Source of the DNA: Candidatus Methanophagaceae archaeon
GTDB taxonomy: Archaea; Halobacteriota; Syntropharchaeia; Alkanophagales; Methanospirareceae
Direction of reading: 5' to 3'
NCBI GenBank assembly: GCA_003194435.1
Contig: PQXC01000004.1
Span: forward strand, 60,752 to 124,751
Length of the DNA: 64,000 nt
Position numbers and translations under genes: made by a program. Within the stretch, counting starts at the first letter, position 1. Each line of letters begins with the position of its first letter. This document shows, one piece after another, positions 1 to 7,133 of the stretch. The notes below the pieces were generated by a model. The model was not told the DNA's origin and ran no database searches. It saw nothing but the letters and a program-made list of their open reading frames with translations.

Positions 1-1478
1 TTAAAAAAACGACAAGACAGTTCGATTTGGCTTTCATCCCAATCAAAGAGAATAAGCCCGAAAGTCCCTGGATGGAAATTACTGAAAAAGCTTACGAAGG
101 GATAAAGAAGGTTATCGGTGGAAGTCGCTGGTATAAAGCCCACGAAGGTGTAAAGACAGCTCTTAACCAAGTTTATTGGGTTGAAATACTTTCAGAAGAG
201 CCAAATGGGTTGCTTATCACGAATCCTTCGCTACCGGGGCAGAAGAAGAAAGTGAAGCAGGTGAAAAAGGTTGTTGAGAAAGATTTGGTTTACCCTTTGG
301 TCAGAGGGAGGGATGTGAAGAAGTGGTATGTTAAGGGAGATTTAGGATATATATTGATGCCGGTCAATGGGAATGGAAAAACTTTATCTCATTCGGATTT
401 AAAAGTAAAGTATCCTGAGACTTACCAGTATTTATCAAATTTTGTTGGCGATTTGGTGAATAGGGGCGGAGAACCGTATAAAACGAAACTAAAGCCTTAC
501 AGAGAAAAGCCTTTTGAAGATGCTGAAAGGGTTGCACCACCATTTTACTGGTTATTTAATGCTGAACCCTCTTTGGCACCCTACAAACTTGTTTGGAAGG
601 TAATTGCTGGTGGAATTACTGGAAAAGCTGTTAGATTTGCATCATCAGTATTAGAACCTATTAAAATTGGATATATTGAAAAGGAAAGCCCTATAATTCC
701 TGATGCTTCGTTAATTCTCATTTCTTTTAACGACCTGGAAGAGGCCTATTATGTTTCAGCGGTCTTAAATTCTTCAATAGACCTTTTAGCAATAGCATCT
801 TATACCTACGAACTCAGACAAGAAACGCACATCACACAATACATCAAAATCCCGAAATACAACTCAAACAACCAATTGCATCGTGAATTGGGCGAGCTTT
901 CAAAGAAAGCGCATGGAATCGCAAGGGAAATCTACGAAGAAGAAAGGGAGGACTTGAGAGATGATTTGGCGACTGTGGAGGAAGAGATTGACAGGAAGGT
1001 TGCAGAACTTTACGGGATTACCGAAGAGGAGCTAAAGGAGATAAAGAAGTGTTTGAGGATTTTGAAGGAGGGCGAGATTGAGGAAGAGGAAGGCGAGGAA
1101 GAAGAGGGTGTTGTTTTGCTAAAGGAGGAGAAAATAGAGATCGAACTTGAGCCTTTGCTGATTAAGGAGAACGAGTCGCAAGAGATGGAGATAAAAATTG
1201 CTAATCATCTCAAAACCGAAATACAAAATGCGGTAGTGAAAGTTATGCTGGAGGATAAACCTCTGTTCAAAGGTGAAATAGCGGGGATTGGAAGTGGAGA
1301 GACGGGGGCATTAACTTTCAATTCACCGAAGTTGAGAAGCGGGCAATATCCGTTAAAGGTTATCTTAGAGCATGAGAACGGGAAGGAAGAAGGGATAAGA
1401 ACTCTTTTTGTGAGGGCTGCAAAGGTTAAAAAGGGAAAAGGTTTGTTTGATGAGGAATTGGAGGAGATGCTAAAATGA
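1..1478 (+). CDS. C-terminal part of an N6-adenine DNA methyltransferase (Eco57I/PglX-like target-recognition region) with an extra C-terminal beta-rich domain; 5' end outside window
   Basis: Frame is open to the window edge (KKTRQFDLAFIPIKE...), so TTG at 27 is not a convincing start. Typical TRD-end motif ETHITQYIKIPKYNSNNQLHRELGELSKKAH. Confidence 0.75.
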   Translation, partial: KKTTRQFDLAFIPIKENKPESPWMEITEKAYEGIKKVIGGSRWYKAHEGVKTALNQVYWVEILSEEPNGLLITNPSLPGQKKKVKQVKKVVEKDLVYPLVRGRDVKKWYVKGDLGYILMPVNGNGKTLSHSDLKVKYPETYQYLSNFVGDLVNRGGEPYKTKLKPYREKPFEDAERVAPPFYWLFNAEPSLAPYKLVWKVIAGGITGKAVRFASSVLEPIKIGYIEKESPIIPDASLILISFNDLEEAYYVSAVLNSSIDLLAIASYTYELRQETHITQYIKIPKYNSNNQLHRELGELSKKAHGIAREIYEEEREDLRDDLATVEEEIDRKVAELYGITEEELKEIKKCLRILKEGEIEEEEGEEEEGVVLLKEEKIEIELEPLLIKENESQEMEIKIANHLKTEIQNAVVKVMLEDKPLFKGEIAGIGSGETGALTFNSPKLRSGQYPLKVILEHENGKEEGIRTLFVRAAKVKKGKGLFDEELEEMLK

Positions 1479-2689
1479 CGAAGGAAATAAATGAGTTCCA
1501 TTTGTTAGTAACGCCACATCAAAATAAAAAACTTCCTATTTATAGATGGTATCATTTTAACCATAGTTTCTCAAGGGATTTAGTATGGTATCTAATAGAC
1601 AAATTCGATCTTAATTGCGGAAACATCATATTAGACCCTTTTTGTGGCAGTGGGACTACTCTATTGGCTGCACAAGAAAAAGGGATATCAGCTATTGGGA
1701 TAGATATTTTACCTCTTTCTGTATTTATTTCTAATGCTAAATTACAAAACTATAATATAGATAAAATCAAGTATAAAATTGAAGAACTTAATAAGCTCCT
1801 GAGCAATCATAACAAAAATACTACCTTAATTCCCGAATTTAAAATACTCCACAAGGTCTTTGACCCCGATGTGTTATCTGATATTTTCGTGGTTAAAAAT
1901 TGGATCCAAAAGATGGAAGATAAAAAACTAAAATATTTCTTCTTTACAGCCCTTCTTTCTATTACGGAAAAAGTTGCTTTCGCCAGGAAAGATGGTGGCT
2001 TTTTACGGATAGTCCCTGATAAAAAGATACCAGACTTTAAAGAAACTTTGTTTATCAAGATTAACGAAATGCTCAGTGATATTGAACACAGCAATTCACA
2101 GAATAATACTAAATCTAAGGCTCAAATAGGAGATGCACGAAAAATTTGTTTTCGAAGTTCATCCTTTGATGCTGTTATTACTTCACCCCCCTATCTTAAT
2201 AGACATGATTATACGAGAGTCTATATCTTAGAATTAGCTATTGCTTTTCTAAAATCGGAGGGAGAAATAAAAAGGTTGAGGTATAAAACCTTACGTTCTC
2301 ACGTAGAGGCAAAAAAAGTTTTCGTTGCCGATGGTTATAAAGAACCTATTAAATTAAAAGAGATCATAGAAAAATTGGAAAAAGAAACTTTACCTAATAA
2401 GCATGTTATTCCTATGATAAAGGGCTATTTTGAGGATATGTACCTGGTACTTAAGGAAGTAGCGAGGGTATTAAAGCAGAGGGGTTTTGCTGCTTTTGTA
2501 ATAGGAGATGTGAGGTATGGTGGATTTTTGGTTCCTGTTAGTGATATTTTGGTAGAGATAGGTGATTCACTGGGGCTAACGCATCAGGAAACACTTGTAG
2601 CAAGGTTAAGAGGAAATAGTCCCCAACAAATGGGTAAATTTGGAAAGATACCGGCAAAGGAGAGCATAGTGATATGGAAAAAGCAATAA
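1475..2689 (+). CDS. DNA methyltransferase (N4-C/N6-A type)
   Basis: SAM motif DPFCGSGTTLLAAQEKG and catalytic SPPY in VITSPPYLNRHDYTR; ATGA overlap with the upstream gene. Confidence 0.85.
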   Translation: MTKEINEFHLLVTPHQNKKLPIYRWYHFNHSFSRDLVWYLIDKFDLNCGNIILDPFCGSGTTLLAAQEKGISAIGIDILPLSVFISNAKLQNYNIDKIKYKIEELNKLLSNHNKNTTLIPEFKILHKVFDPDVLSDIFVVKNWIQKMEDKKLKYFFFTALLSITEKVAFARKDGGFLRIVPDKKIPDFKETLFIKINEMLSDIEHSNSQNNTKSKAQIGDARKICFRSSSFDAVITSPPYLNRHDYTRVYILELAIAFLKSEGEIKRLRYKTLRSHVEAKKVFVADGYKEPIKLKEIIEKLEKETLPNKHVIPMIKGYFEDMYLVLKEVARVLKQRGFAAFVIGDVRYGGFLVPVSDILVEIGDSLGLTHQETLVARLRGNSPQQMGKFGKIPAKESIVIWKKQ

Positions 2690-3693
2690 AAGATGATATT
2701 TATTGGATGAGAAAAGAAACAAGTCTCTCAAAAATAAGAGATATTCTATTGCTGATTGAAAAATATAATGGTCTTCGTTATACCGAAATCGCTGATATAG
2801 GTATTAAGGAGGGAATTTTTATAAAAAAAGATGGGACTCCGCTTGCTAAATCCCCTATTTATCACTGCATACGAGCTGCCCTCAAATTGGGATTAATTAC
2901 TCAAAATAAGAGCAAAAAATATCTAGTAAACTGGAATAAACCAGAAGTTCGTAAACTTATCAAATTAAGACAATATCTTGCTCCTCTAAACAAGGAGGAA
3001 GAACTTATTTTTCAAAAATTGATTATTGACAACCCTGACTGCAGGGAAGCTTTTTTCTGGATATTTATGGGTAAAAAGGAATTTTCATGGAAAAATTTTG
3101 TGGAACATGGTAAAGTAGTGTATATCTCCCCCACGGTAATAGAAATGAAAGGAGGAAAACAAAAAAGGAAGGTACGAACTAAAAAATATATTAACATGGA
3201 AACAGGCGATCAAATTGTTCTTGAAACACCGATAGAGCGTATGGCAGTGGAGTGGGGATTACAGCTCTGGGGGAGAGAGTGTTCCTTAATCGAGGAAGTA
3301 TATATTGATGAAACAAGGCATATACTTTATCCACTTGATAGGACGTTATCCTTAGAGTTCGATTATTTTCTAAAAAAATTTCTCCAACTGTATAGACCAT
3401 TTCCGGATTCGGATTGGAGCTTCTTTCCTATCGACCTAACGATATTTGAATTAGCACCTTTGTTAAGAGTTTCTGTAAAAGAGATTCAAAATCGCTTTTT
3501 TTTGGAACTATGGCAAAAATTTCCGGAATATATAAAATTCAGCAGTTCCTCAAAGGGTGCTTTAACCTTTAGAAGCCTATCAGAGAAGACCGACGAAAAA
3601 GTTTTAAAGAACTTTATAAAATTAAATAATATATGGATGACTCATATAATAGTTCATAAGAAACTCTGGGAGATGAAACAATGGAGAGATTAG
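2674..3693 (+). CDS. winged-helix domain protein of defence operon, function unknown
   Basis: 339 aa ORF overlapping both neighbours; N-terminal HTH-like segment (IRDILLLIEKYNGLRYTEIADIG...YHCIRAALKLGLI). Confidence 0.6.
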   Translation: MEKAIKDDIYWMRKETSLSKIRDILLLIEKYNGLRYTEIADIGIKEGIFIKKDGTPLAKSPIYHCIRAALKLGLITQNKSKKYLVNWNKPEVRKLIKLRQYLAPLNKEEELIFQKLIIDNPDCREAFFWIFMGKKEFSWKNFVEHGKVVYISPTVIEMKGGKQKRKVRTKKYINMETGDQIVLETPIERMAVEWGLQLWGRECSLIEEVYIDETRHILYPLDRTLSLEFDYFLKKFLQLYRPFPDSDWSFFPIDLTIFELAPLLRVSVKEIQNRFFLELWQKFPEYIKFSSSSKGALTFRSLSEKTDEKVLKNFIKLNNIWMTHIIVHKKLWEMKQWRD

Positions 3694-4937
3694 AGATTAA
3701 GAAGATAGAACCAGAAGAGAGGTATAATCTCTTAGGACTTTCCAGAAATCCTTTTCCTTCAGATGGTGCTTTACTGGAGCCCCCAAGGGTTATAACCTTC
3801 CCGGATAAGAGACTGAAAGAAGAACTTGAAAATTTTCTTAATGCGCTACTCCATGGAGGGGGAGTAACCAAAGAAGGTCGAGCTCTCATTGGAGAATATG
3901 GCTCTGGAAAGACTTTTTATCTTAAAATGGTTCATTACCTTGTAAAGAAGGAATTTCCCAATGTTGCCAGTTTTTATATTCAATATCCTGGGTATGGTTT
4001 TCATGACTTTACAGGCAGTATAGTTAGAGCAATAGGTTTGGGAAATATAGTAAGAAAATTATGGAGTGTAATACGGGAAGAACTATTAAAAAGAGTGAAA
4101 GAAAATGATTTAAATTGGTATTACACGATTTTTCCTTCAGAAAAGGGAAAATATGCCTGGTTTGGAACCTCGCTGCAGGAACACATTCTAAGTGATTACA
4201 GAACTTTCTTTGACTTCGCTAAAAAACAGAGGGCTAATGTAGACGCTATATTGAGTATTTTTAGTAAAATAATAGAGAAATCTGTTGGGATAAATGCCAA
4301 TAGTGCACGTAAACTGTCTCGTATTCTTATGGAAAGTCATTATAAGAGTTATTTTGATTGGGAAGATATTGCTCCTAAAAGGCGAAAAGAAATAGGTGAT
4401 TATGAGTTCCTTTCGGCAATTCTCTCTCTTATCAAAAAAGTAGACAATTATAGTTTTATCTTGATTCTTCTCGATGAATTTGAGGAAATCCCGGCATCAA
4501 AACGGTTCACCGTTAAAGAGGCAACGGATTACGAATATACCATAAGACGTCTTTTCGACCTGGCAAGTGCCTTGCCTCTGGGTATAATTATTGCTATGGT
4601 ACCTACAGCTTGGGAGTTAACGAAAGAGTATTGTGAACCCCTGGCATCACGACTTCTGAGACCAATTCGAATTCAACCTCTTGATAAAGATGGGGCAAAG
4701 AAACTTATTGTTGCTTACCTTAACGATGCTCGGGAGGAGAAAGAGGCTTTGTTTCCTTTTCCCGATAATTTATGGGAGCTACTACCCGATATTGTAAGGG
4801 AAAAACCAAGAAACCTTTTGAACTTTTGTCACGAGACTATCGAGATTGCAGCAAGTAGACGAACCTCAATAGATGAAATCCTTATAAAAGAAATTGCTGA
4901 CATGTGGATAGCCGAATTTAGGGAAAGGAAAGGATAG
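3681..4937 (+). CDS. P-loop ATPase (BrxC/BrxD DUF2791-like or Cdc6-like)
   Basis: Walker A GEYGSGKTFYL; Walker B ILILLDEFEEI; ends TAG. Confidence 0.7.
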   Translation: MERLEIKKIEPEERYNLLGLSRNPFPSDGALLEPPRVITFPDKRLKEELENFLNALLHGGGVTKEGRALIGEYGSGKTFYLKMVHYLVKKEFPNVASFYIQYPGYGFHDFTGSIVRAIGLGNIVRKLWSVIREELLKRVKENDLNWYYTIFPSEKGKYAWFGTSLQEHILSDYRTFFDFAKKQRANVDAILSIFSKIIEKSVGINANSARKLSRILMESHYKSYFDWEDIAPKRRKEIGDYEFLSAILSLIKKVDNYSFILILLDEFEEIPASKRFTVKEATDYEYTIRRLFDLASALPLGIIIAMVPTAWELTKEYCEPLASRLLRPIRIQPLDKDGAKKLIVAYLNDAREEKEALFPFPDNLWELLPDIVREKPRNLLNFCHETIEIAASRRTSIDEILIKEIADMWIAEFRERKG

Positions 4938-4939
4938 AT

Positions 4940-5611
4940 ATGCCAGTGATAGAGTCCTATTTTCTTGACACAAATATATTGGTTAAAACTTCAGAATACT
5001 TTAGAGTGAAAGAAGAGGGTGGAGATGTAAGCAAACTGGAATCATACTATGCTTTTTTACGGCAAACTCGGAATGACGGACACAAATTAATTATAAGCAG
5101 AATCAGTATTTTAGAAATGTATTTCCTTTATCACAGATGGTTTTATTATGATAAAAAGAGAGAAGAACGAGCGCCATTTAATGAAATTTTTGATAGAAGA
5201 GAGGCTACTTATGAGCTTGAAGAGCGAGAAAGAATACAAATAAGAGATATTATTGAAGATTTTGTCCGAAGGAGCAAAAGCCTCGGTATCGAGTTCTCAA
5301 ATGTAGACCAGAATGATGTGCTTGAATTAGCAGAAATTCTTTATAAAGGCTCAAAACCCTCAGTGGAGCCATATAACTTGACTATTTACGCAAATTCAAT
5401 TTTGGAATGCAGTAAATATCTCGTTACCGATGATGGGAAATTACGTAAAGCAATTGACTATTTAAGGAAGCAATACAAGGAAGAAATTCGTAGAGAAATA
5501 ATAGATAGGTTTGGAGAAGCAAAGTATCCTTATTGGATAAAGAAACACGATCTTCCAAATGCCCGTAAACCCAAAGCTAACAGAAAAATGCATAAGTCCA
5601 TACCCGATTGA
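4940..5611 (+). CDS. PIN-domain nuclease-like protein
   Basis: PIN acidic motifs FLDTNIL, ISILEMY and YLVTDDGKLRKAI; starts 3 nt after the upstream stop. Confidence 0.75.
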   Translation: MPVIESYFLDTNILVKTSEYFRVKEEGGDVSKLESYYAFLRQTRNDGHKLIISRISILEMYFLYHRWFYYDKKREERAPFNEIFDRREATYELEERERIQIRDIIEDFVRRSKSLGIEFSNVDQNDVLELAEILYKGSKPSVEPYNLTIYANSILECSKYLVTDDGKLRKAIDYLRKQYKEEIRREIIDRFGEAKYPYWIKKHDLPNARKPKANRKMHKSIPD

Positions 5612-5699
5612 TAGGATAGTGTGATGAAGGTGATTACAGATGAAAATGAACCCTGAAGAACTCGCCACGCTATTGGGAGAAGGATAAGGATAGAACAAA

Positions 5700-7133
5700 A
5701 TGACGCGGGACGAACTAAACGCAAAGCTGAGGTATTATTTCCCCGGATATGTGGTGGACAAAGGTCTTTCCAACCGACAGGACATCAAAAGAGTCCCTAA
5801 ATTTGTATCAGAACACATGCTCACGAGAATATCAGAGGAAAGCGACTCCAAAGCTTTCAACGAGAAATTGATGAAAGTCATCGAATATGTAAACACCCTT
5901 TACCCGGAACCAAAGGACAAAGATTTGATTCTTGACAAAATCTTCCGGAAAATGAAATGCAAGATAATAGATGAGATAAAAGTAGAGATAGACGAGAAGT
6001 ATGGCATAAGAAAAGCGACTATACCGAGTTTAAACCTCAGGAATGCAATGATTAAAGATTCGGTTGTGGATGCTAACGAGCAATTACTTTCTACCGGCGT
6101 TTAGGGGCTGGTAAGTTTAAAATATTCTCCACCCCTGATAGACGAGAAAGAAAGAGATTTGACTCTTCCTGTAATGATAGACGACTTCAAGCCTTTTCAT
6201 GTCTCGAACATAGACCTGAAGGATTTTATAAAAAAGAGGCAGCATTTCTCTCTCGATGAATGGATTGATATGCTGATAAACACTATGGGTTTAAACCCTG
6301 AGGTTTACACGCAAAGGCAAAAACTTATCCTTATCAGCAGGTTTGTCCCTCTGGTGGAAAACAATGTGAACATGATGGAATTTGGACCGAGAGCCACAGG
6401 AAAAACTTATTTCTACCGAAATATATCCTTCTACACGAGGATATTCTCCGGCGGTGTGATAACACCCGCACAGCTATTTTATAACATTGCAAGGAGGACA
6501 GTTGGAGAAATAGGAATGAAAGATTGCATCGTTTTTGATGAGATTACGAAGTTAAGATTTCCCAATCCGGGTGATATGATGGGTAAATTGAAAGACTATA
6601 TGGTGGATGGTCATTTTGAAAGAGGCCCGAAGAAAGCCACTTCTTTATGCTCGCTTGTCTTGATGGGGAATATAGATGTTACCGGCTATGTTCCTGCTGA
6701 GGATATTAATTATGCGCTGCCGGAGTTCATGAGGAATGATACCGCTTTTATTGACCGAATTCACGGCGTGATTCCGGGCTGGGAAATCCCTAAGATAAAG
6801 AGGAGTGAGGTTCACCTATCCAAAAATTATGGTGCGTCCGTTGATTACTTCTCAGAAATATTGCATGGGCTACGGAGATTCTATTTTGCTCCTCTCATAA
6901 GGTCAAAGATTGAGTTGGAAGGGGTTACGATAAGGGACGAGATGGGAATTTACAGGGTTGCTTCTGGCATGGCTAAGATTCTTTTCCCGGATAAGAAGTT
7001 CGATGAGGATGAGCTAAAGCTTATAATGGACCTGGCGATAGAATATCGGCAGAAATTGGCTGATTTGCTTCACAGGATGGCACCAGGGGAGTTCGAGAGG
7101 GGAAAAATAAGTTATAAGGTTATTGTTATTTAG
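5700..7133 (+). pseudogene. brxL: BrxL, BREX system AAA+ protein (short form), interrupted by one in-frame TAG at 6102-6104
   Basis: ORFs 5700-6104 and 6159-7133 share a frame; the 18 codons between read GLVSLKYSPPLIDEKERD. Core BrxL motifs: HFSLDEWIDML, RFVPLVENNVNMMEFGPRATGKTY, IVFDEI. Confidence 0.8.

What the first reader, a model, noticed from the sequence alone, without database searches (positions are those of the whole stretch)
6102..6104. Single in-frame TAG in brxL at a normally tryptophan position
Seen: 5700-6104 and 6159-7133 share a frame. The sequence reads LLSTGV[TAG]GLVSLKYSPPLIDEKERDLTLPVMIDDFKPF with no other stop. From memory of BrxL proteins this segment reads GG(I/V)W-x-I-x-L-x-Y, so TAG replaces TGG by one transition. 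Options: fresh nonsense inactivation, sequencing/assembly error, amber readthrough (including pyrrolysine in an archaeon), or two separately translated halves that assemble. Other genes in the window terminate at TAG, so wholesale recoding is unlikely.
Basis: partly seen in the sequence, partly recalled or inferred. Interest (0 to 1): 0.75.

Follow-up and report, generated by a model that had tools for sequence, protein, structure and literature searches.

The report
Archaeal brxL gene broken by stop
A defence gene (brxL) in an uncultured archaeon carries one premature stop codon where every relative has tryptophan; it is most likely a freshly broken gene (or a base-level error in the assembly), with no sign of special decoding.

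Summary
Window 5700-7133 is one BrxL reading frame (PF20442 BrxL_N, then PF13337 BrxL_ATPase) interrupted only by TAG at 6102-6104. Every close relative, and even an 84%-identical remnant in the same family, has TGG (Trp) there. Of 397 genomes searched from the phylum, this is the only full-length BrxL with an in-frame stop, so the gene is not naturally split here. The window's genome has no pylS, no pylB and no CUA-anticodon tRNA among 42 tRNAs found. TAG ends about a fifth of the window's genes, including two in the same operon. Both halves still show strong purifying selection, so the stop is very young.

Best reading: a recent nonsense mutation that ended BrxL function and leaves a 134-aa stub cut in the OB-fold. 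Second: a consensus error or strain variant. The same contig carries two suspicious 98%-identical abutting duplications in housekeeping genes. Suppression, pyrrolysine, or two assembling halves are unlikely but not excluded. Related brxL copies in sister genera are shattered, so the gene is evidently dispensable.

The BrxL is not in a BREX operon: the genome search found no PglZ. It sits downstream of a type IIG restriction enzyme, an arrangement repeated in four other archaeal loci. That is the more interesting by-product.

The parts
5700..6104 (+). 5' part of brxL: N-terminal BrxL_N domain (tri-helical region and the first part of the OB-fold), 134 aa, ending at the premature TAG
   Evidence: PF20442 E 5e-27; TIGR02688 positions 3-125; 71-76% identical to intact homologues over the whole protein
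6102..6104 (+). in-frame TAG replacing the TGG (Trp) codon of homologues
   Evidence: 1 TAG inside a full-length profile match
6105..7133 (+). 3' part of brxL: remainder of the OB-fold and AAA+ (MCM-like) ATPase, Walker A GPRATGKT and Walker B VFDE intact; no C-terminal Lon-like domain (short form); nearest in-frame starts TTG 6159 and ATG 6174
   Evidence: PF13337 E 3e-110; TIGR02688 positions 129-449; alignment; starts
1..1478 (+). 3' part of the type IIG restriction-modification gene (1241 aa, C25:58504-62229, begins before the window), intact
   Evidence: PADLOC PDLC03630 REase_MTase_IIG 1096 bits, residues 16-1105
1475..2689 (+). DNA methyltransferase, intact
   Evidence: PF01555 E 8e-16; PADLOC MTase_II E 9e-82
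2674..3693 (+). unknown 339-aa protein; ends at TAG, overlapping the next gene
   Evidence: no family hit; stop codon
3681..4937 (+). AAA ATPase weakly similar to BrxC/BrxD; ends at TAG
   Evidence: PF10923 E 6.5e-6
4940..5611 (+). PIN-domain-like protein, marginal hit below the family cut-off
   Evidence: PF01850 E 2e-4

Best explanation
A G-to-A nonsense mutation, young on the scale of this gene's divergence, changed the conserved Trp codon of a short-form BrxL to TAG. Translation stops after 134 residues, inside the OB-fold and before the whole AAA+ ATPase, so the ATP-driven DNA-binding ring cannot form and this gene is functionally lost. The other genes of the acquired defence island (type IIG restriction-modification enzyme, methyltransferase, ATPase, PIN protein) are open and could still work. 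Shown: the stop, Trp in all relatives, both halves conserved, absence of Pyl genes and of a found CUA tRNA, no natural split. Inferred: that the stop is present in the cells and that it abolishes function.
For: One stop only and no frameshift in 478 codons. TGG in every intact close relative and in the G025 remnant. Of all full-length BrxL matches in 397 phylum genomes only this one has an internal stop. Nonsynonymous distance to intact relatives is no higher after the stop (pN 0.133-0.161) than before it (0.148-0.212), and similar to distances among the more diverged intact relatives; against the nearest relative (L059, 103 codons after the stop) dN/dS is about 0.05 (0.061/1.14). Selection therefore acted until recently. 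Dispensability is independently visible: brxL copies of this type are shattered in G025 (2 TGA, 1 TAG, 2 TAA), reduced to a 3' remnant in G033:C107 and frameshifted in L073. The cut falls in the OB-fold: residues ~80-180 are the DNA-contacting OB-fold in BrxL (PMC12839542), and a low-confidence model puts residue 135 at the start of strand beta-4. The literature holds that BrxL is absent from many BREX loci, hence not indispensable (PMC12839542).
Against: No reads were available, so a consensus error cannot be separated from a real mutation. The near absence of other lesions is also what an error, or a decoded stop, would give. Two 98%-identical abutting duplications on the same contig, absent from genus mates, make assembly or strain artefacts plausible there.
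Confidence: 0.66

Rival explanations
1. Sequencing, assembly or strain-mixture artefact: the cells carry TGG, or the TAG is a minor variant that entered the consensus of a metagenome-assembled contig.
For: Single lesion in an otherwise selected gene. The same contig has two head-to-tail 98%-identical duplications (488 bp, out of frame, in a gene next to a MetF-like ORF; 526 bp in moaA) that genus mates lack, which look like stitched strain haplotypes.
Against: Single-base errors in assembled consensus are rare (general knowledge); TGG to TAG is an ordinary transition; no duplication lies near 6102; brxL is decaying in sister genomes.
Confidence: 0.23
2. Programmed or leaky decoding of UAG (pyrrolysine or an amber suppressor tRNA) gives full-length BrxL.
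For: The frame continues under purifying selection after the stop. Tyr, Asp, Glu-CTC and Arg-CCT tRNAs were not found, so the tRNA list is incomplete and the genome is about 93% complete.
Against: PylS and PylB absent: best hits 26.8 and 29.9 bits against cut-offs of 178 and 348, while one of the 14 control genomes passes each cut-off. No CUA anticodon among 42 tRNAs; one further weak 43-base match was not examined. TAG ends 13 of 57 ORFs of at least 100 aa and 7 of 37 of at least 200 aa, including two genes of this operon and brxL itself. No homologue has TAG here.
Confidence: 0.04
3. Two separately translated halves (134 aa and about 320 aa from TTG 6159 or ATG 6174) assemble into a working BrxL.
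For: ATG 6174 coincides with the start of the PF13337 match; the ATPase half is conserved.
Against: No homologue in 397 genomes is split here. The cut is inside the OB-fold, not between domains (PMC12839542). No start codon lies near the stop for coupled restart: the nearest in-frame starts are 55 and 70 bases downstream, with weak ribosome-binding energy (-3.0 kcal/mol; operon neighbours -4.6 to -11), though that test is weak because many window ORFs score no better.
Confidence: 0.05

Closest known systems
BrxL of type-1 BREX (Acinetobacter BrxL, PDB 8EMC/8EMH)
   Same: N-terminal region and AAA+ ATPase align over profile positions 3-477 (E 3e-149); Walker motifs kept
   Different: no C-terminal Lon-like domain (ends at about 477 aa against 679); premature TAG at the Trp equivalent to residue W139 of that chain; no PglZ found in the genome
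Short BrxL (TIGR02688; type-4-like BrxL without a C-terminal domain)
   Same: length and domain make-up: N-terminal DNA-binding part plus ATPase only (PMC12839542)
   Different: locus has a type IIG restriction enzyme instead of the PAPS reductase/PglZ set of type-4 BREX; gene interrupted
Nonsense-mutated defence-gene pseudogenes
   Same: single stop in an otherwise open, conserved frame; relatives decayed too
   Different: nothing notable except the unusually young state
Pyrrolysine UAG decoding in methanogenic archaea
   Same: in-frame UAG in an archaeal gene
   Different: no pylS or pylB found, no CUA tRNA found, not a methylamine methyltransferase, no conserved UAG in homologues

Membership tests
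BrxL family (PF20442 + PF13337, TIGR02688) | BrxL_N followed by BrxL AAA+ domain in one frame | tested here: met
   interrupted by one TAG
BrxL family (PF20442 + PF13337, TIGR02688) | uninterrupted coding sequence giving a full-length protein | tested here: not met
   TAG at 6102-6104
Recent pseudogene by nonsense mutation | relatives carry a sense codon at the site | tested here: met
   TGG in all intact relatives and in the L059 remnant
Recent pseudogene by nonsense mutation | present in the organism's DNA, not an error | not testable with these tools
   no reads; collections leave out the window's own genome
BREX system | PglZ present | tested here: not met
   PF08665 no match in own genome, about 93% complete, controls ring
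BREX system | BrxC/PglX core | tested here: inconclusive
   ATPase weakly like BrxC/D (E 6.5e-6); the large methyltransferase scores as type IIG R-M (1096 bits), only marginally as PglX (56 bits)
Pyrrolysine-decoding organism | pylS and pylB genes | tested here: not met
Pyrrolysine-decoding organism | tRNA with CUA anticodon | tested here: not met
   none among 42 tRNAs; list incomplete
Naturally split two-gene BrxL | homologues split at the same place | tested here: not met
   397 genomes, no such case

The most novel reading that the evidence does not exclude
The stop is not fatal: UAG readthrough, or separate translation of the two halves, yields a functional two-part or low-level BrxL beside the type IIG restriction enzyme, and the stop acts as an expression throttle on a costly defence ATPase.
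Probability: 0.06. Interest if true: 0.45.

Novelty: new member of a known kind. Interest (0 to 1): 0.14.

Why it matters
As a finding it is ordinary: defence genes are gained and broken often, and this is one more case caught early. It is useful as a caution against calling recoding from one stop in a metagenome assembly. The by-product, a short BrxL repeatedly paired with a type IIG restriction enzyme in archaea, here in a genome that shows no PglZ, deserves its own look: it suggests BrxL also works outside BREX.

Tried and rejected
Searches of viral contigs for relatives and for the exact site with TGG or TAG failed because the machine gave no answer. Plasmids gave no DNA-level match and only protein matches below 60% identity; phage records gave only distant protein matches. 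The AlphaFold model from six sequences is poor overall (mean pLDDT 50.6); only the local beta/alpha order around residue 135 was used, with caution. The ribosome-binding test does not discriminate well. Ka/Ks with distant homologues is saturated at synonymous sites, so only pN comparisons and the nearest relative were used. Weak BrxL-like hits in a genus mate (G006:C133) were not confirmed. Two literature searches on pyrrolysine gave nothing bearing directly on this lineage.

Full report
What is there. Window 5700-7133 (contig C25 of the window's genome, offset 60751) is a single BrxL frame interrupted once, by TAG at 6102-6104. The first 134 codons match BrxL_N, the remaining 342 the BrxL AAA+ domain. 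The product, if read through, would be 477 aa, about the length of intact short-form homologues (476-480 aa). These end without the Lon-like domain of the 679-aa Acinetobacter protein.

The column. In five close homologues of 71-76% identity (L068-L072) the codon is TGG; it is also TGG in L059, a damaged copy in the same family that is 84% identical at DNA level. Across more distant BrxL the position is W, rarely Y. In Acinetobacter BrxL it corresponds to W139 (counted), inside the OB-fold assigned to residues ~80-180 (PMC12839542). A low-confidence model places residue 135 at the start of strand 4 after the helix of that fold. So the stop cuts through a domain.

Not a natural split, not recoding. 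A search of 397 genomes of the phylum with a profile of intact homologues found 65 with BrxL; the only full-length match with an internal stop is the window's. PylS and PylB are absent by curated cut-offs, with one control genome passing each. ARAGORN on all 42 tRNA loci found no CUA anticodon, and lowering the threshold added only one weak 43-base match, not examined further. The tRNA set is not complete (Tyr, Asp, Glu-CTC, Arg-CCT missing), so this is strong but not absolute. TAG ends 13 of 57 ORFs of at least 100 aa in the window, including genes ending at 3693 and 4937 of the same operon and brxL itself at 7133.

Age. Nonsynonymous divergence from intact relatives is no higher after the stop than before it and is similar to that among the more diverged intact relatives. 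Against the nearest copy dN/dS after the stop is about 0.05. If the frame had been untranslated for an appreciable part of that divergence, this would be higher. The stop is therefore recent, or it is not in the cells, or it is decoded.

Background of loss. The same kind of brxL is broken in other archaea by independent lesions: G025:C231 (several stops and truncation), G033:C107 (3' remnant, 91% DNA identity over 143 bases), L073 (frameshifts), and a more distant copy in G030:C174 (stops). No full copy was found in the six genus mates searched. The island is AT-rich (GC 0.34-0.42 against 0.452 for the window). This fits an acquired, dispensable defence island.

Error or mutation. Reads are not available. 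On the same contig, about 9-18 kb upstream of the stop, two pairs of 98%-identical abutting repeats disrupt or double housekeeping genes; genus mates have single copies. They may be stitched strain haplotypes, so I give an artefact or minor-variant reading about one chance in four. A real recent nonsense mutation remains the best reading.

How it works, or fails to. BrxL is an ATP-dependent DNA-binding ring built by its N-terminal and AAA+ domains (PMC10164562). A 134-residue stub lacks the ATPase and part of the OB-fold and cannot make the ring (inference). No start codon lies near the stop for coupled restart; in-frame TTG 6159 and ATG 6174 have weak ribosome-binding signals. The type IIG enzyme, which combines nuclease and methylase in one chain (general knowledge of type IIG enzymes), and the other genes remain open.

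The system. The own genome has no match to PglZ, so this is not a BREX operon. The large enzyme upstream scores as type IIG restriction-modification over residues 16-1105. The same enzyme family lies just upstream of brxL in L070 (58% identity), L068 (45%), L071 (43%) and L072 (40%), with one or two variable genes between. All four close intact brxL loci with enough upstream sequence show it. I did not find this pairing in the recent BREX survey by term search (PMC12839542), but that is not proof of novelty.

Noticed in passing
window 1-7133 and upstream C25:58504; L068, L070, L071, L072: A short BrxL (no Lon-like domain) lies downstream of a type IIG restriction-modification gene in the window and in all four close intact archaeal loci with upstream sequence, with variable small genes between; the window's genome shows no PglZ. 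Possible BrxL-assisted restriction module outside BREX.
   Followed up: partly
L004 969-1944 (C25:48968-49943): Two abutting 488-bp copies, 98% identical, out of frame, break a gene that lies next to a MetF-like ORF; genus mates have one copy. Recent duplication or stitched strain haplotypes.
   Followed up: partly
L004 8943-9996 (C25:56942-57995): A 526-bp tandem duplication (period 528, in frame, 98% identical) inside moaA gives a 509-aa ORF; genus mates have 321-345-aa single copies.
   Followed up: partly
L059/L121 (G025:C231), L075/L122 (G033:C107), L073, L063 (G030:C174): Independent wreckage of brxL in related archaeal genomes: stops, truncations, frameshifts; the L075 remnant lies near a transposase-like ORF.
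   Followed up: partly
own genome, tRNA set: tRNAs for Tyr, Asp, Glu(CTC) and Arg(CCT) were not found among 42; probably missing from the assembly or hidden by introns.
   Followed up: no
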